A stretch of DNA of 24,416 nucleotides. Source: a virus. Location: the IMG/VR virus record IMGVR_UViG_3300035692_000061, positions 1 to 24,416 of that record; one strand, written 5' to 3'. The position numbers were made by a program, and so were the translations under genes. Under the pieces are notes generated by a model. The model worked only from the letters and a program-made list of their open reading frames with translations, made no database searches and was not told the DNA's origin. The number at the start of each line of letters is the position of its first letter. Within the stretch, counting starts at the first letter, position 1. Below are positions 2,690-8,852 of the stretch, in pieces.

Positions 2690-2726
2690 GAGGGTCGCTT
2701 CCTAGGGGGACTAGGAAGCGACCCTC
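2690..2726 (-). terminator. intrinsic terminator of the excisionase-like gene
   Basis: A 16-bp perfect stem (2690-2705 with 2711-2726) and a 5-base loop GGGGA. The TAG stop of the 2711-2923 gene lies inside the stem. There is no T-tract on either strand. The symmetry would let it stop transcription from both sides. Confidence 0.75.
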
Positions 2727-2923
2727 GTCTCGTTGTCGGCGTCGCGAGCGGTCGCCAGCGCCACCATGTAGCGCTCGACCTCCGCGCGGATGAAGACGTA
2801 CGAGCCGGTACGACCGGGAAGCTTCGTCGACTCGAGCACACCCTCCCTAGCCAGCTTCAGTACCCAAGATCGATCGACACCCAGCATGTGGGCAGCTTCA
2901 CGCGCCCCGATGACATCAGCCAT
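2711..2923 (-). CDS. excisionase-like winged HTH protein (Xis or Cro role)
   Basis: A 70-residue protein matching the MerR-like HTH_17/excisionase pattern. Residues 4-14 (VIGAREAAHML) begin the HTH, with GVDRSWVLKLAREGVL as the recognition part, followed by a wing containing LPGRTGSYVFIRAEVERYM. The ATG at 2923 is chosen because the domain starts there. No Shine-Dalgarno precedes it, and a TAAGTT box ends 7 bases upstream, so a leaderless mRNA is likely. It is transcribed divergently from the repressor, the place where temperate actinophages carry a Cro-like or Xis gene. It may direct excision by bending DNA at attP about 340 bp away, or act as the anti-repressor. Confidence 0.8.
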   Translation of the reverse strand: MADVIGAREAAHMLGVDRSWVLKLAREGVLESTKLPGRTGSYVFIRAEVERYMVALATARDADNETRVAS

Positions 2924-3016
2924 ACGGGAAAACTTAGGACCATTCACAAGCTTTTGGAACACGCCGACACGCCGATACTCAAGACAATTTGCGGTTGTGG
3001 TCCTAAACTTCGGCGC
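2924..3016. promoter_or_regulatory. divergent switch promoter region with paired operator-like sites
   Basis: Two inverted copies of one sequence lie between the divergent genes: AACTTAGGACCA (2931-2942) and TGGTCCTAAACT (2998-3009), identical over TGGTCCTAA. The left copy overlaps the TAAGTT -10-like box of the leftward gene. A rightward promoter is plausible with TTGGAA at 2954-2959, a 16-base spacer and TACTCA at 2976-2981, which places the right copy in the early leader. The arrangement fits repressor operators that shut both promoters. The protein that binds them is inferred, not shown. Confidence 0.6.
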
Positions 3017-3367
3017 ATGGTGACGGAGATGCAGGGCGCGGACCCGGGCTGGCCACTCACAGATCGGCTGCGCCGCGCTCGCGAGTACGGCGGCTTCGAC
3101 CAGACGCAGCTGGCGGCCGAGCTCGGCGTGTCCAAGAACACGATCAGCAACTACGAGCGCGGGTTCACCAAGCCCAGGCGACCGATGCTGCTCGCCTGGG
3201 CCATGGCCACGGGGGTAGCCCTCACGTGGCTGGAGACGGACGATGCGTCCAAGATCGAGATCGTGCGCCCGAAGGGATTCGAACCCCTAACCTTCTGGTC
3301 AGGGGTGTCCCCATTGTGGGCAATTATCCCGTTTTTGCGCACTGACGATCTGGCGCTGACGGCATGA
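3017..3367 (+). CDS. XRE-type lysogeny repressor with attP inside its reading frame
   Basis: A 116-residue protein. Residues 16-73 form an HTH_3 domain (LRRAREYGGFDQTQLAAELG, then VSKNTISNYERG as recognition helix). The ATG at 3017 lacks a strong ribosome binding site. Codons 84-93 (RPKGFEPLTF) are the antisense of a tRNA-Arg 3' end, the att core. After it comes a 23-residue tail from W94 to A116 that ends DDLALTA. Recombination with attB would replace everything after about codon 93. In the host tRNA-Arg sequences I remember, the next codon becomes TGA, leaving a 93-residue protein. The tail ends LTA, close to the LAA of ssrA tags, so the viral form may be unstable and the prophage form active, as in mycobacteriophages BPs and Brujita. 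Confidence 0.85.
   Translation: MVTEMQGADPGWPLTDRLRRAREYGGFDQTQLAAELGVSKNTISNYERGFTKPRRPMLLAWAMATGVALTWLETDDASKIEIVRPKGFEPLTFWSGVSPLWAIIPFLRTDDLALTA
3264..3297. other. attP: attP core: 3' end of a tRNA-Arg gene
   Basis: On the minus strand this is a tRNA 3' part: anticodon-stem remnant CAGAAGG, T-arm AGGGGTTCGAATCCCTT, and acceptor CGGGCGCA. No D-arm or 5' acceptor follows, so it is not a working tRNA. It is the 34-bp shared sequence by which an integrase recombines with a host tRNA-Arg (the ACG isoacceptor is my best guess). Repressor sequence continues in frame on both sides, which marks it as attP and not attL or attR. Confidence 0.85.
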
Positions 3368-3612
3368 GCGCGACGGGCAGCCAGGAGCCGGTGACGGTCG
3401 CGGGACGGGCGTTCGCGCTGGCGATCGCCGAGCACATCGATCGGCCGGTGCCGGAGGCTGGCTGCGGGCGCTACATCGTCGAGGTCAACGAGTTAGGCGA
3501 AGTGGGGGTGTGGTGCCCGGGGGCCGGCTTCATATGGCTTGAGGGCGACACCGCCTCGGCGAAGAACATCCGGGGCATGCTGCTGGCACTGCGCGCCGGA
3601 GCGATCGCATGA
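3364..3612 (+). CDS. small conserved protein, copy A of a duplicated gene
   Basis: An 82-residue protein. Its ATG at 3364 overlaps the repressor stop (ATGA). It is clearly homologous to the 6339-6578 protein, about 60 percent identical by eye. They share FA-AIAEHIDRPVP near residue 20, GRY near residue 36, and the C-terminal AKNIRG-LLALRAGAIA. Function is unknown; no metal or nucleotide motif is visible and no membrane segment. It begins the plus-strand chain of small genes between attP and the integrase. Because it follows the repressor directly, it would be expressed with it in the viral state and separated from it after integration. Confidence 0.8.
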   Translation: MSATGSQEPVTVAGRAFALAIAEHIDRPVPEAGCGRYIVEVNELGEVGVWCPGAGFIWLEGDTASAKNIRGMLLALRAGAIA

Positions 3613-3959
3613 GCGCGACGAAGCTCCACTACAGCCGGCTCAGTCCGGTCGCTCGTTCGACCATCGTCGACCACGGGATCACCATCGTCGAGTACGTCCG
3701 CAAGGCGGGCCGCTGGGACGACGGCGACTGGCATGGCGACCGTTGCGGGTGCACCGATGACCGTTGCATCGGGTTCCACCATGACGAGAACGAGGACTGC
3801 GGATGCCTGCCCGTCCTCCTCGAGGAGGCACTGGGGTGGACCTATCCCGGCTTCCATGCAGCTAGGCCCGGCTATCGCGCGCTCCCTCACGGCGGGTGTA
3901 TCGGGATGGGGTTCCGGCGGGCCGGCGGGTGCTGTGTCCAGTGCGGGTGGACCGCATGA
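3609..3959 (+). CDS. Cys/His-rich small protein, 116 aa
   Basis: The ATG at 3609 overlaps the previous stop (ATGA). The protein contains a dense metal-ligand region: CGCTDDRC, then FHH, then CGC (about residues 47-67), and a second cluster near the C-terminus, GGCC--CGW. This looks like one or two small zinc sites. The family is not recognised. It is coupled by ATGA overlaps to the genes before and after it, forming a chain of four small genes. Proteins of this style are frequent in the accessory part of actinophage genomes near the integrase. A role in host takeover or transcription control is possible but has no direct support here. Confidence 0.7.
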   Translation: MSATKLHYSRLSPVARSTIVDHGITIVEYVRKAGRWDDGDWHGDRCGCTDDRCIGFHHDENEDCGCLPVLLEEALGWTYPGFHAARPGYRALPHGGCIGMGFRRAGGCCVQCGWTA

Positions 3960-4117
3960 GCCCGCATCTGGCGGCCGGGCAGCCGCTTGAACGCGACGAG
4001 TTCGATCCGGTGTGGTGGACCTGGTGCGGGGAGCTCGTCGAGGCCGAGGAGGTCCGAGAGGACCCGGCCGTCGTCGACTGTGCTGACTGCCTCGACCTCT
4101 ACGCGGACGAATCATGA
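3956..4117 (+). CDS. small acidic Cys-containing protein, 53 aa
   Basis: The ATG at 3956 overlaps the previous stop (ATGA), and its own stop overlaps the next ATG in the same way. The protein is acidic and contains WTWCGELVEAEEV followed by CADCLDLY, so three Cys are placed like a small incomplete zinc ribbon. This resembles short zinc-ribbon peptides often seen in actinophages that end in C--C-plus-aromatic. The function is unknown. The unbroken ATGA coupling on both sides is the strongest evidence that it is translated. Confidence 0.65.
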   Translation: MSPHLAAGQPLERDEFDPVWWTWCGELVEAEEVREDPAVVDCADCLDLYADES

Positions 4118-4185
4118 GCCTCCTCGGAGACCTGAATCGGCTGATGGTCCCCGGCTGGGTGACCGAGGACCAATCCGAGGCGTGA
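4114..4185 (+). CDS. candidate 23-residue micro-ORF
   Basis: The ATG at 4114 overlaps the previous stop (ATGA), continuing the coupling pattern of the chain. The peptide MSLLGDLNRLMVPG followed by WVTEDQSEA is amphipathic in its first half and ends with TGA at 4183-4185. It is too short for homology. The coupling and GC-rich wobble positions are the only support. It may be a real microprotein or a relay that carries ribosomes toward the integrase start 60 bases downstream. Confidence 0.35.
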   Translation: MSLLGDLNRLMVPGWVTEDQSEA

Positions 4186-4244
4186 GCTGCTGAGCCGATG
4201 AGACGGGCAATGGGGCCCGGGTTTCCGCTGATGAAGGGGTTGTG

Positions 4245-5141
4245 ATGGCGCTAGCGAAGTGGCCGGTCTCACCGGTGTGGTCGGAGTGGATCGAGGCCTG
4301 GTCGACGGCGCTACGCGCAGCGGACCGGTCGAGGGCGACGATCGACAGCCGCCGCCAGGTCCTCGCGCAACTGTCGCGGGAGGTTGCCGGCGACCCCGGG
4401 GACCTCACACCCGCGCAGCTCCTCGAGTGGATGGGCCTGGAGGTGTGGGACGAGGACCTCCAGCGGCTGCGGCCGCGGTGGTCGCGCGAGCGCCGGCGCG
4501 CAGTCCGGTCTTCGCTGGCCGGCTTCTATCGGTGGGCCCACGGTGCCGGTCGCGTGGCCGACGACCCAGCGGCCGGGCTGCCGGTGATCCGATCGTCGCG
4601 GGGAATGCCCAGGCCAGCGGCACTGGCGACGTATAGCGCGGCTCTGGGACGTGCCGGGGCTCGCGAGCAGCTCATGCTCGTGCTCGCGTGCGAGCTGGGG
4701 ATGCGCCGCGCCGAGGTCGCCCAGGTCCACAGCCGCGACGTGGTCGACGATCTGGTCGGGCAGAGCCTGATCGTGCACGGCAAGGGCGCCCGGCCGCGGT
4801 CGATCCCGATCGACGACGACCTGGCCGAGCAGCTGCGCGACGCCCGCGGCTACGTGTTCCCCGGCCGCTGCGACGGGCACCTGTCTCCGCGGTGGGTCGG
4901 CAAGGTCGTGGGACGGCTCCTGGAGGGCACCACCACGATGCACCAGCTTCGCCACGCCTTCGCCACGAGGATGCTCCGCGAGGACACCAACATCCGCGTG
5001 GTGCAGCGCTGGCTGGGACACGCCTCTCTGGCCGTGACCCAGGTGTACCTCGACGTCGACGACGACGAGATGCGCGCAGCCGGCGCGAAGGTGCACGCCT
5101 ACTTCAGCCCGCATCGTCCGCCAAGTCCGACAAACCCCTGA
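4245..5141 (+). CDS. int: tyrosine integrase (XerC/D-like)
   Basis: A 298-residue site-specific recombinase. The ATG at 4245 is preferred because AAGGGG lies 6 to 7 bases upstream; the GTG at 4242 is too close. Residues 10-105 are the SAM-like core-binding domain. The catalytic set is complete: R154 in GMRRAE, K180 in HGKG, H233 and R236 in HQLRH, H259 in LGH, and Y268. The size and direct entry into the core-binding domain suggest there is no separate arm-binding domain, so it may need few arm sites around attP. It should recombine the tRNA-Arg core at 3264-3297 with the host gene. The gene is 0.95 kb from attP, with four small genes between. Its stop codon lies in a conserved hairpin. Confidence 0.93.
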   Translation: MALAKWPVSPVWSEWIEAWSTALRAADRSRATIDSRRQVLAQLSREVAGDPGDLTPAQLLEWMGLEVWDEDLQRLRPRWSRERRRAVRSSLAGFYRWAHGAGRVADDPAAGLPVIRSSRGMPRPAALATYSAALGRAGAREQLMLVLACELGMRRAEVAQVHSRDVVDDLVGQSLIVHGKGARPRSIPIDDDLAEQLRDARGYVFPGRCDGHLSPRWVGKVVGRLLEGTTTMHQLRHAFATRMLREDTNIRVVQRWLGHASLAVTQVYLDVDDDEMRAAGAKVHAYFSPHRPPSPTNP

Positions 5142-5160
5142 TCTCTGGATCAGTGCTTTG
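5138..5160 (+). repeat. intergenic palindrome element E1
   Basis: CTGATC-TCTG-GATCAG followed by TGCTTTG. It overlaps the integrase stop codon. It is the same element as at 5589-5611, with a compensating pair change (G-C here, A-T there). A related half-site, AGATTGGGAG, lies at 5174-5183 and supplies the ribosome binding site of the next gene. Confidence 0.6.
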
Positions 5161-5573: not shown

Positions 5574-5588
5574 TGTCCGGTGAGACCC

Positions 5589-5611
5589 CTAATCGTGTGA
5601 TTAGTGCTTTG
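5589..5611 (+). repeat. intergenic palindrome element E2
   Basis: CTAATC-GTGT-GATTAG followed by TGCTTTG, preceded by CCC as in E1. It lies 15 bases after the 5193-5573 stop and before the bidirectional terminator. Confidence 0.6.
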
Positions 5612-6178: not shown

Positions 6179-6226
6179 ATCATAACGTTGACAGCCCTTC
6201 GTGTCAACATTGTGATGACACGAAGG
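6179..6226 (-). promoter_or_regulatory. strong promoter and nested operators of the toxin-antitoxin-like pair
   Basis: On the minus strand, -35 TTGACA (6207-6202), a 17-base spacer and -10 TATGAT (6184-6179) put +1 at 6172, the first base of the GTG start. A perfect 11-bp inverted repeat (6196-6206 and 6216-6226, 9-base centre) covers the -35. A second repeat, TTGACA-N8-TGTCAA, spans 6188-6207, and its left arm could be a weak plus-strand -35 with TGTGAT at 6211-6216. This is a typical autoregulated promoter. Confidence 0.8.
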
Positions 6227-6309
6227 CCGAGCCAGCCTTCACGTGGATGGGCGTACGCCTCGCCGACCTGGCCCACGAGCTGTATGGACCCACATCCGAA
6301 CATGGCCAC

Positions 6310-6338: not shown

Positions 6339-6578
6339 ATGTCCGAACAGGAACCGTTGACGCAGGCGGGACCGGCCTTCGCCCGAGCGATCGCCGAGCA
6401 CATCGACCGCCCGGTGCCGGATGCCGCCGTCGGCCGGTACGTCGTCGATGTCTACGAGAGCGGTGGGTTGTTGGTCTGGTACCCGGAGTCCGATGGCGTC
6501 CGGCTTGACTGCGACAGCGACACGGCGAAGAACATTCGCGGCTTGCTCCTGGCGCTGCGCGCCGGGGCGATCGCATAA
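6339..6578 (+). CDS. small conserved protein, copy B of a duplicated gene
   Basis: A 79-residue paralogue of the 3364-3612 protein. It shares AIAEHIDRPVP, GRY-V-V, a short Gly turn and the identical ending LLALRAGAIA. The region between (G-L-VWYPESDGVRLD) has diverged and lost Cys residues present in copy A. The ATG at 6339 is preceded by GGAG within palindrome element D. It is flanked by the same kind of element on both sides and ends before a strong terminator, so it is probably a single-gene transcript. A weak plus-strand promoter may overlap the toxin promoter near 6188-6216. The function is unknown. Two retained copies suggest selection for dosage or for divergent partners. Confidence 0.8.
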   Translation: MSEQEPLTQAGPAFARAIAEHIDRPVPDAAVGRYVVDVYESGGLLVWYPESDGVRLDCDSDTAKNIRGLLLALRAGAIA

Positions 6579-6580
6579 GG

Positions 6581-6601
6581 CACTGATCAACAGATTAGGA
6601 G
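6581..6601 (-). repeat. intergenic palindrome element E3 (reverse orientation)
   Basis: CACTGATC-AACA-GATTAGGAG. Its reverse complement, CTCCTAATC-TGTT-GATCAGTG, aligns with E1 and E2 including the AGTGC that follows the palindrome. One pair is a G-T wobble. It begins 2 bases after the 6339-6578 stop. Confidence 0.6.
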
Positions 6602-6682: not shown

Positions 6683-6819
6683 GGCGACCGGGAGGCAGGG
6701 CCCGGCGGCCTGGCCCGTCCGATGTACGACCCGGCGACACGTCCGGGGATGTCCGCACACTCAGGGGCGCACTGACCACGCTAGGGCGGGGTGCGCCGTG
6801 ACCGATGGAGGAACACACC

Positions 6820-7455
6820 TTGGCCCAGACCACGATCGCCGTCGTGAACTTGAAGGGCGGCAGCTCGAAGACCACGACCGCAGCGCATCTGTCGGCGCAG
6901 CTGCACGGCGAAGGCCTGCGCGTCCTGACGGTGGACGCGGACCCGCAGGGCTCATGTCTGCGCTGGGCGGAGACCGCGGGCTGGCCGTGGGCGACGATCG
7001 GGCTGCCAGTGCGGACGCTGCACACCCAGCTGGGCGGCCTGCTCGGCGGCCACGACGTCGTGGTGATCGACACGCCTCCGCTGGAGTCCCAGTCAGGCAT
7101 CGTCGCTTCGGCGCTGCGGGCGGCGGACCTGGTGATCGTGCCCACGGCGCCGACGCCGATCGAGATCGAGCGCCTGCCGGCTGTACGGGAGGCCCTGGAG
7201 GACGTGGCGCCGCTGCGGCGTGACGGGACACCACCGCCGGCGCGGGTCCTGCTGACCCGCACGGTGGCCGGAGCCACGAGCACGGCCGTATGGCGGGCCT
7301 CGCTGCGCGAGGACGGCTGGAGCGTGCTGCACACGGCCGTGCCGCGGCTGGAGGCGCTCTCCCAGTCCTACGGTGACCTGATCCCGCCCGGCCTCGGCCC
7401 GTACGCGGTCGTCGCGGCCGAGCTGCTGGGCATCCTCGGGCGGGCTGCCGCATGA
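6820..7455 (+). CDS. parA: ParA-family partition ATPase
   Basis: A deviant Walker-type ATPase of 211 residues, starting at TTG 6820 because GGAGG lies 8 bases before it; an in-frame ATG at 6805 has no ribosome binding site. Motifs: deviant Walker A KGGSSKTTT (residues 12-20) with the signature first lysine, Walker A' DADPQG, and Walker B VVVIDTPP. There is no N-terminal HTH, so it fits type Ib ParA, which pairs with a small centromere-binding protein. It should form ATP-dependent patches on the nucleoid that separate plasmid or phage-plasmid copies. The next gene overlaps by ATGA, and centromere-like repeats lie there. Confidence 0.92.
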   Translation: MAQTTIAVVNLKGGSSKTTTAAHLSAQLHGEGLRVLTVDADPQGSCLRWAETAGWPWATIGLPVRTLHTQLGGLLGGHDVVVIDTPPLESQSGIVASALRAADLVIVPTAPTPIEIERLPAVREALEDVAPLRRDGTPPPARVLLTRTVAGATSTAVWRASLREDGWSVLHTAVPRLEALSQSYGDLIPPGLGPYAVVAAELLGILGRAAA

Positions 7456-7823
7456 GTCGCGCCGAGCAGGAGGCGAAGGCCGCCCGGTTACGGGGCCTCC
7501 GCACCCCCGCTGACGCGGAGGTACGCACTTCCGCACCTACGGAGGTGCGGACCTCCGTAGGTGCGGAACTCGAATCAGTCGAGGAACGCGCGGAGGCCCT
7601 ACTGCGGAGACTGCCGCCGCGGGTGAAGCCGGTGCGGTTGAACGTTGACGTTTCGCCTGCCGTCCGTGCGGCGCTGCGGAGGCTGTGCGCCGAGCTGGAG
7701 GTCGATCTGGGCGGTACGCCGGTCTCAGGGCAGGACGTTCTGCGCTGTCTGCTCCAGTGGCCTCTCGTGGACGCCGAGGCTCGGGCCCGGCTGCTGCGCG
7801 AGCTCGCCAACGGACGTCCGTAG
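7452..7823 (+). CDS. parB: small ParB-like centromere-binding partner, probably ribbon-helix-helix
   Basis: A 123-residue protein coupled to parA by ATGA. The first 50 residues are charged and low complexity. The segment EVRTSAPTEVRTSVGAE (about residues 23-39) contains the repeated EVRTS and is encoded by the inverted repeats at 7529-7568. Residues 58-118 contain PVRLNVDVSP (a beta strand), then helices AVRAALRRLCAELEV and GQDVLRCLLQ, a ribbon-helix-helix-like order, ending in a charged helix. Such proteins bind short repeats and stimulate ParA through a flexible N-terminal tail. Assignment rests on position, size and this pattern; I do not recognise a named family. Confidence 0.7.
   Translation: MSRAEQEAKAARLRGLRTPADAEVRTSAPTEVRTSVGAELESVEERAEALLRRLPPRVKPVRLNVDVSPAVRAALRRLCAELEVDLGGTPVSGQDVLRCLLQWPLVDAEARARLLRELANGRP
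7496..7568. repeat. centromere-like inverted repeats inside the ParB-like gene
   Basis: An 18-bp perfect inverted repeat (7529-7546 with 7551-7568, 4-base centre GCGG) built from TCCGCACCTAC / GTAGGTGCGGA units. A weaker repeat, CCTCCGC (7496-7502) with GCGGAGG (7515-7521), precedes it. All of it lies within coding sequence. The same unit recurs at 7818-7882 and at 8901-8914. Confidence 0.7.
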
Positions 7824-7882
7824 GTGCGGACATCCGCAGGTCAGTAGGTGCGGAGGTGCGGACCTGCTGACCTGCGTAGGTG
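7818..7882. repeat. centromere-like repeats at the convergence of parAB and the late operon
   Basis: GTAGGTGCGGA at 7820-7830 and 7844-7854, GGAGGTGCGGACCT at 7852-7865 (identical to 7541-7554), GTAGGTG at 7876-7882, and an inverted pair GCAGGTCAG (7836-7844) / CTGACCTGC (7867-7875). They fill the 60-base gap between parB and the endolysin stop and may double as a transcription stop. Confidence 0.7.
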
Positions 7883-7883
7883 T

Positions 7884-8852
7884 TCACCAGGTGGCGATCT
7901 CCGCCCACGTTCGGGTGATGGTGACGTTGCCTCCCAGGCTGGTCCCTTGCACTCGGAGGTACCAGTCATCGGCTACGGCTGCCTGGTGTGCGATCTCCAC
8001 GCCCATCGTGCCGTCTGGCGGCAGCACGTAGTCACGGAGGGCGTAGAAGAACTCGTCGTCGTGTCCGTTGGCCGTTCGATAGGGCCGCAGCTGGAAGCTG
8101 GTTCCGGGTGGCCCGGACACGTAGGCCTGGATCGTGGCGGAGTACCAGCCGACGGGGCCGCCGAAGATGACGTATGGGCCACCGGCCACGTCTTCGTCGT
8201 CATCGAACTGGAGATCCTTCCAAGAGCCCTTGATCAGAGTGCGGGGGCTGTCCGCTGCTCCCTTCTGGATGGTCTTCACGGGCGTGTCTCCATCTTCTCC
8301 GTCGTAGTTCGCGAGCTGCCTGCGGGCGTCGTCCATGTTCATCGGGTCGGGGTCGATCTTCCGATCCGGTGCCCATTCCTTGTGTGCCAGGAAGGCCCGG
8401 TCTATCTCGGCGGTGGTGTTGATCCCGAGCTTCTGACAGAGGGCGTGAACGCCCTTCAGTGCCTCCGACTTCTGGCCTCCCTGCCACTTCTCCCCGGTGG
8501 TGTGGTCTGTCTCGATGCCGATGGCGTAGGTGTTTCCGGCGTCCTTCGGGATGACGCCCCAGGGGCCGCCTTCTCCGGCGTGGTTCGCTCGGCCAGCGGC
8601 GATGATGTGCCATACCCCGTCGAAGTCCAGCCAGAGCTGGGAGAGCGGGCCTTCCAGGCCTTCCCTGCCGTAGTAGATGACTTCCCAGCCGTGGCTGGTC
8701 TCACCGGCGGGGCTGGCATCGTGATGGATCATGATGGAGTTCGGGTTGAAGTTTCCGTCCCGCCCGTGGTGCTTCCAGTCCCCGTGCTCGATGACGGTGC
8801 ATCCGGCGGCTCGGAGCACGTCGGCCAGCCAGGTCAGGGGATAGGTCGCCAT
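7884..8852 (-). CDS. endolysin, N-acetylmuramoyl-L-alanine amidase
   Basis: A 322-residue Amidase_2 (PGRP-like) enzyme that cleaves the amide bond between N-acetylmuramic acid and L-alanine in peptidoglycan. The ATG at 8852 has AAGGAG about 8 bases upstream. Visible zinc-site residues: IMIHH (H43/H44) and AHKEW (H157, with K158-E159), plus ANHAGEGG around H91 and IGIETDH around E114. The family pattern ends near residue 178. A linker with DDDEDV follows, then a beta-rich C-terminal domain (about 225-322), perhaps a wall-binding domain. There is no signal peptide, so a holin would be needed. It is the last gene of the late operon, and its stop is 60 bases from the end of parB. Confidence 0.9.
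   Translation of the reverse strand: MATYPLTWLADVLRAAGCTVIEHGDWKHHGRDGNFNPNSIMIHHDASPAGETSHGWEVIYYGREGLEGPLSQLWLDFDGVWHIIAAGRANHAGEGGPWGVIPKDAGNTYAIGIETDHTTGEKWQGGQKSEALKGVHALCQKLGINTTAEIDRAFLAHKEWAPDRKIDPDPMNMDDARRQLANYDGEDGDTPVKTIQKGAADSPRTLIKGSWKDLQFDDDEDVAGGPYVIFGGPVGWYSATIQAYVSGPPGTSFQLRPYRTANGHDDEFFYALRDYVLPPDGTMGVEIAHQAAVADDWYLRVQGTSLGGNVTITRTWAEIATW

What the first reader, a model, noticed from the sequence alone, without database searches (positions are those of the whole stretch)
3017..3367. Integration-dependent immunity switch: attP lies inside the repressor gene
The sequence shows a 34-bp tRNA-Arg 3' end in frame within the XRE repressor. Downstream codons add a 23-residue tail that ends LALTA, close to the LAA of ssrA tags. 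Crossover with attB would exchange everything after codon 93. In typical actinobacterial tRNA-Arg genes, as I remember them, the antisense reading after CCTTC is TGA, so the prophage form would end at F93. This is the logic of mycobacteriophages BPs, Brujita and Charlie: unstable repressor before integration, active one after. Here the integrase is separated from the repressor by four small genes, unlike BPs, so this may be an independent version.
Basis: partly seen in the sequence, partly recalled or inferred. Interest (0 to 1): 0.9.

Follow-up and report, generated by a model that had tools for sequence, protein, structure and literature searches.

The report
Repressor switched on by phage integration
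This actinobacterial virus carries its integration site inside its repressor gene, so inserting into a host tRNA gene trims off a probable self-destruct tag and switches immunity on; the reading is right, but it is a new example of a known system (mycobacteriophage BPs type), not an independent invention.

Summary
Confirmed: a 116-aa HTH repressor gene (3017-3367) contains, in frame, 35 bp (3263-3297) identical to the 3' end of actinobacterial tRNA-Arg(ACG). In all five host sites found, the first base beyond the core turns Trp94 (TGG) into TGA, so a lysogen would make a 93-aa protein ending GFEPLTF. A real prophage of the same kind (L020) ends exactly so, inside an intact tRNA-Arg. Across the repressor family, 8 of 8 loci in bacterial genomes end antisense in an intact tRNA. 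Where attL and attR could be joined, the phage form regains a tail: 9 of 10 tails end in -A, 7 in -AA, against 19% and 5.5% of other ORFs. The window's tail end (RTDDLALTA) is kept in relatives with synonymous changes. Known already: repressor and integrase are homologues of the BPs/cluster G pair, same tRNA, same frame; UmaThurman (43 bp identical) was already predicted to use this; gaps of 3-5 genes between repressor and integrase are also described. So: new member of a known kind. Degradation itself is untested. Unexpected: the same phage carries a parABS-like partition cassette, which in cluster A phages replaces integration.

The parts
3017..3367 (+). repressor gene, phage form, 116 aa
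   Evidence: HTH_3 8e-13; homologous to repressors of Bipper, Angel (cluster G/BPs), UmaThurman, Barebow
3017..3295 (+). codons 1-93 kept in the lysogen; host supplies TGA
   Evidence: attB in L072-L076 reads CCTTC TGA; lysogen L020 ends RPKGFEPLTF*
3263..3297 (.). attP common core, 35 bp = 3' end of tRNA-Arg(ACG), antisense
   Evidence: identical in host tRNA-Arg genes L072-L076 and in phages UmaThurman, prophiGD43A-5, Bipper
3296..3364 (+). codons 94-116, phage-only tail ending RTDDLALTA, probable ssrA-like degron
   Evidence: last 9 residues kept in L030, L050, L032, L006 with mostly synonymous changes; tail ends enriched for -AA across the family; predicted disordered
2711..2923 (-). excisionase-like HTH gene, divergent from rep, first gene of the leftward early operon
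   Evidence: PF12728 3e-8, PHROG 66, TIGR01764 excise
2933..3007 (.). divergent control region with inverted CTTAGGACCA / TGGTCCTAAA (2933-2942, 2998-3007), candidate operators
   Evidence: conserved in L005; partly in L006
3364..3612 (+). small ORF 1, starts inside the rep stop codon (ATGA)
3609..3959 (+). small ORF 2
3956..4117 (+). small ORF 3; 81% identical homologue in L050, placed after int there
4114..4185 (+). putative small ORF 4 (23 codons, weak)
4242..5141 (+). tyrosine integrase, no -AA C-terminus
   Evidence: PF00589 5e-21; 64-82% identical in L049-L052; C-termini

Best explanation
An integration-dependent immunity switch of the BPs type. On infection the leftward early promoter and the rightward rep-int transcript compete. 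The 116-aa repressor carries an exposed C-terminal ssrA-like tail and is probably degraded by a host Clp protease, so it cannot hold the lytic promoter down. If enough integrase acts, crossover between attP (inside codons 83-94) and the 3' end of a host tRNA-Arg(ACG) gene cuts off the tail, restores the tRNA, and joins codon 93 to a host TGA. The resulting 93-aa repressor is stable, represses, and gives immunity. The same crossover removes int and the small ORFs from the rep promoter. Shown here by sequence: the gene, the core, the in-frame stop in candidate hosts, an equivalent lysogen, conservation of the tail. Inferred: degradation, activity difference, promoters, the host of this particular phage.
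For: 35-bp core in frame in rep, with attP TGG versus attB TGA as the first difference. L020: prophage repressor ends RPKGFEPLTF* inside an intact tRNA-Arg(acg). 8 of 8 family repressors found in bacterial genomes (Brachybacterium, three Rhodococcus, Microbacterium, Ornithinimicrobium, Kocuria, Aeromicrobium) end antisense in an intact tRNA: Arg, Lys, Asn, Thr. Joining attL and attR in silico gave phage-form tails ending AAAAA, RRAA, LSAA, GVAA, PAAA, EIAA, RVA, EAA, SVA and PTG. Among 30 tails 28 end in A and 24 in AA; baseline of 597 ORFs is 19% and 5.5%; with the four later ones 31 and 25 of 34. Window tail end RTDDLALTA matches L030 with three synonymous and no amino-acid changes in nine codons, while the codons before it have diverged. 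BPs: long form degraded, short form active, by experiment (PMC4557955).
Against: No protein half-life or immunity data. The window ends -TA, not -AA; its last Ala sits in a GCATGA stop/start overlap, and 35% of such overlaps end in Ala anyway (34 of 98), so the last residue alone is weak evidence. One reconstructed tail (L024) ends -TG. The integrase lacks an -AA end, unlike the described typical arrangement, though Angel's integrase (ending VAGF) lacks it too. Host of this phage unknown; terminase has no phage match. Tails counted are partly related to each other.
Confidence: 0.86

Rival explanations
1. attP overlaps rep only because the tRNA-derived core happens to sit next to int; both protein forms work and the tail is a passive remnant.
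For: No functional test exists; last Ala of the window tail lies in an ATGA overlap.
Against: In-frame overlap in 8 of 8 genomic loci with four tRNA isotypes; strong enrichment of -AA tails with different codons and stop codons; amino-acid conservation of RTDDLALTA amid diverged sequence.
Confidence: 0.07
2. An independently evolved copy of the BPs logic.
For: Four small ORFs between rep and int; no nucleotide similarity to cluster G outside the core region.
Against: Repressor and integrase are both homologous to Angel/BPs, Bipper and UmaThurman proteins; same tRNA, same frame, same gene order with a divergent excise-like gene.
Confidence: 0.03
3. The phage is mainly kept as a plasmid by its parABS-like cassette, and the integration switch is decaying or optional.
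For: ParA homologue (PHROG 164, 5e-31) with 8-bp iteron arrays at 7499-7567 and 7802-7888; a relative, L006, has the same ParA, the tail and int but no tRNA core in rep.
Against: In the window rep, core, tail and int are all intact, and an episomal form would keep the tagged repressor.
Confidence: 0.08

Closest known systems
Mycobacteriophage BPs / cluster G (Angel gp33-gp32), integration-dependent immunity (PMC4557955, PMC9262239)
   Same: Homologous repressor and integrase; 35-bp core of tRNA-Arg in the same frame (VRPxGFEPxTF); host base next to the core makes a stop in the next codon (Cys to stop there, Trp to stop here)
   Different: Tail ends LALTA, not LDKAS; four small ORFs between rep and int; terminase without a match in the phage collection
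Gordonia phage UmaThurman gp36 (PMC4929511)
   Same: 43 bp identical (3263-3305) including the core; repressor, integrase, excise order; predicted tRNA-Arg attB
   Different: Repressor N-terminus distantly related (38% over 48 residues); int follows directly; tail ends QIPA
Mycobacteriophages Bipper and Typha, M. abscessus prophiGD43A-5 (PMC8092301)
   Same: Same tRNA core region and frame, repressors of Bipper and Typha 51-53% identical to window N-terminus; some M. abscessus examples have 3-5 genes between rep and int
   Different: 75-78 kb genomes; tails ending DAA, AVA, DAA
Small-genome phages: Gordonia cluster CW, Curtobacterium phage Barebow, Bifidobacterium prophage Bb423phi2 (PMC5559632, PMC6109161)
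   Same: Compact 15-20 kb phages with attP in rep and a tagged phage form; GMA5 has an extra gene between rep and int
   Different: Other tRNAs (Lys, Met) in several; no partition genes noted

Membership tests
Integration-dependent immunity (BPs type) | attP common core lies inside the repressor ORF, in frame | tested here: met
   3263-3297 within rep 3017-3367
[quoted passage not shown]
   tRNA-Arg(ACG) in five genomes and in lysogen-type record L020
Integration-dependent immunity (BPs type) | Host sequence at attL gives a stop at or near the junction | tested here: met
   TGA as the codon after F93 in L072-L076 and L020
Integration-dependent immunity (BPs type) | Phage form ends in an ssrA-like tag | tested here: inconclusive
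   Ends LALTA; relatives LALAA and LELAA; sequence fits, degradation not shown
Integration-dependent immunity (BPs type) | Tyrosine integrase gene downstream on the same strand, co-transcribable with rep | tested here: met
   int 4242-5141 (+), four small ORFs between, chained by ATGA overlaps
Integration-dependent immunity (BPs type) | Integrase also carries a C-terminal degradation tag | tested here: inconclusive
   Ends SPTNP; close relatives TKH and PIC; Angel int ends VAGF although BPs Int is reported to carry a signal
Integration-dependent immunity (BPs type) | Long form unstable and inactive, short form stable and immunising | not testable with these tools
   needs expression experiments
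Integration-dependent immunity (BPs type) | Repressor and integrase homologous to BPs gp33 and gp32 | tested here: met
   44% (1e-12) and 42% (4e-56) to Angel, a cluster G relative of BPs

The most novel reading that the evidence does not exclude
The phage has two prophage states: integrated, with a trimmed, stable repressor and immunity; and plasmid-like, held by a parABS-like cassette while still carrying the tagged repressor. That would be a carrier state without full immunity, or a step in the evolution from integration to plasmid life, with L006 (same ParA, tail kept, tRNA core lost) further along.
Probability: 0.15. Interest if true: 0.65.

Novelty: new member of a known kind. Interest (0 to 1): 0.36.

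Why it matters
It extends a rare kind of genetic switch to an uncultured actinophage lineage, and the family survey shows the arrangement is the rule for this repressor family in Microbacterium, Kocuria, Brachybacterium, Ornithinimicrobium, Aeromicrobium and Rhodococcus genomes, with at least four tRNA isotypes and several reading frames. The tRNA core also marks the exact seam at which unrelated DNA-binding halves are joined to a shared tail and integrase, which makes immunity-group swapping testable.

Tried and rejected
Whole-window nucleotide search for a close cultured relative: only the att core region matched. Terminase against phages: no match, so the host stays unknown. Rfam and ARAGORN on the window: nothing. 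Taking the -A end of the window tail as evidence by itself: rejected, because ATGA overlaps favour Ala. Completing attP for L020, L017, L018, L026 and L014: no second core copy in the fetched ends of those records. The 37-bp hairpin replacing the core in L006: found in no other viral contig by exact pattern, left unexplained.

Full report
OBSERVATION. The window is an IMG/VR virus record of 24,416 bases. An ORF at 3017-3367 (+) encodes 116 aa with a helix-turn-helix domain (HTH_3, 8e-13). Inside it, 3263-3297 is 35 bp identical to the 3' end of tRNA-Arg(ACG) on the opposite strand, as found in five actinobacterial genomes. The reading frame runs through the core (VRPKGFEPLTF, residues 83-93) and on for 23 residues, WSGVSPLWAIIPFLRTDDLALTA, and the stop codon overlaps the next ORF's ATG.

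WHAT INTEGRATION WOULD DO. In all five host copies the sequence is CCTTCTG-ATCCG; in the phage it is CCTTCTG-GTCAG. The first differing base is the third base of codon 94: TGG (Trp) in attP, TGA in attB. A crossover anywhere in the core therefore yields a 93-residue product ending in F93. The same trick, with a Cys codon, is described for BPs (PMC9262239). The exact 32-mer used was found in 5 of 396 genomes of the phylum sample, so the perfect site for this attP is narrower than 'any actinobacterium'.

A LYSOGEN OF THE SAME KIND. Locus L020, an 18.4-kb prophage record with 2.1 kb of flank, has a related repressor whose last codons are RPKGFEPLTF followed by TGA; ARAGORN finds an intact tRNA-Arg(acg) at 6214-6287 (-), overlapping that end.

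THE FAMILY. One scan of bacterial and archaeal genomes with a repressor alignment returned eight loci. In all eight the repressor's 3' end lies antisense in an intact tRNA gene: Arg(acg) twice, Lys four times, Asn, Thr. The tRNA is read in different frames (GFEPLTF and DSNxEP types; SRTRTYDL in L022 and L024). For six of these the integrase lay on the same contig 14-37 kb away and the second core copy was found; joining the two halves gave phage forms ending AAAAA, RRAA, LSAA, GVAA, PAAA, EIAA. Further records gave RVA, EAA, SVA and one exception, PTG (L008 there is the same prophage as L054). Together with tails read directly in phage records, 31 of 34 end in A and 25 in AA, against 18.9% and 5.5% of 597 ORFs of at least 120 codons from the same loci (the p-values there, 2e-18 and 3e-25, ignore relatedness and cover the first 30). 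Stop codons and Ala codons vary, so this is not one inherited DNA motif.

THE WINDOW'S OWN TAIL. Its last nine residues, RTDDLALTA, recur as RTDDLALTA (L030), RSDDLALTA (L050), RTDDLALAA (L032) and RTDDLELAA (L006). Between the window and L030 the nine codons differ by three synonymous changes and no amino-acid change. The part between the core and this block has diverged. This looks like selection on the peptide. A caution: the last Ala is in a GCATGA overlap; 34 of 98 ORFs with an ATGA overlap end in Ala. The L[AVT]A ending is rarer (1.0% of ORFs). Thr before the last Ala is not a standard ssrA ending; from general knowledge, the LVA variant of ssrA is a working degron in E. coli, and the tail of Angel, a cluster G relative of BPs, ends KAS, so -LTA is plausible. 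AlphaFold gives a confident helical domain at 14-73 and mostly low confidence from 77 on, consistent with an exposed tail.

MOSAIC SEAM. Nucleotide similarity of the window to L005 (rep N-terminus 83%, excise-like gene 74%) stops at 3298, the end of the core. Similarity to L049, L050, L030 and L032 starts at 3257-3263, the start of the core, and takes in an integrase 47-82% identical and, in all but L049, the tail end, while their repressor N-termini give no match to the window's. So the core is the joint at which DNA-binding halves have been exchanged.

RELATION TO KNOWN SYSTEMS. The gene order excise-like (left), rep, int is that of UmaThurman, Bipper, Angel, Barebow, SallySpecial and Rahul. 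Repressor and integrase are homologous to Angel's, and Angel's core (GTGCGCCCGGAGGGATTCGAACCCCCAACCTTCTG) is the same tRNA-Arg in the same frame. UmaThurman has 43 identical bases and is published as predicted integration-dependent immunity at tRNA-Arg (PMC4929511). In M. abscessus prophages the integrase may be 3 to 5 genes from rep (PMC8092301); GMA5 has one gene between (PMC5559632); an 18-kb Bifidobacterium prophage has the same design (PMC6109161). What differs here is modest: an -LTA end, an integrase without an -AA end (shared with close relatives), and a set of small ORFs between rep and int.

AN UNEXPECTED NEIGHBOUR. At 6805-7455 there is a ParA-type ATPase (PHROG 164, 4.9e-31; NCBIfam ParA_partition 1.5e-35, below its cut-off), similar to RedRock-type ParA of extrachromosomal cluster A phages, followed by a small ORF (7452-7823), with 8-bp-period repeats at 7499-7567 and 7802-7888. 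RedRock has two parS loci of 8-bp repeats, and in cluster A parABS replaces the integration cassette (PMC7157519). Here both occur. Of 12 related records only L006's has this ParA, and L006's repressor keeps the tail but has lost the tRNA core. I have no test of function; it is the most interesting loose end.

VERDICT. A well-supported new member of a known switch. Sequence evidence for truncation is strong; degradation of the long form is inferred.

Noticed in passing
window 6805-7890: ParA-like ATPase, small downstream ORF and 8-bp-period repeat arrays (parABS-like) in a phage that also has an integrase and attP-in-repressor; literature on cluster A phages has parABS replacing integration.
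   Followed up: partly
L006 3050-3367 (contig IMGVR_UViG_3300046738_000025): Close repressor relative keeps the tail RTDDLELAA but has no tRNA core; a 37-bp nested hairpin (CGTGGAGCG..CGCTCCACG) sits in its place. The window has a similar hairpin at 614-648; no other viral contig has it.
   Followed up: partly
window 3382-3613 and 6348-6579: Small ORF 1 after rep is duplicated downstream of int (77% identical over 232 bp); both copies end ALRAGAIA.
   Followed up: no
window 5134-5160, 5585-5611, 6577-6599: Repeated intergenic motif ACCCCTRATC....GATYAGTGCTTTG, possibly a promoter or operator; a similar TCAGTGCTTTGG lies within the repressor gene of L006.
   Followed up: no
window 3257-3298 versus L005, L049, L050, L030, L032: Mosaic breakpoints fall on the attP core, so repressor DNA-binding halves are swapped against a common tail and integrase.
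   Followed up: yes
L024/L091: One reconstructed phage-form repressor tail ends PTG, an exception to the -A/-AA rule.
   Followed up: no
window 4242-5141: Integrase C-terminus SPTNP, and TKH or PIC in close relatives, lack the -AA end seen in many family integrases.
   Followed up: partly
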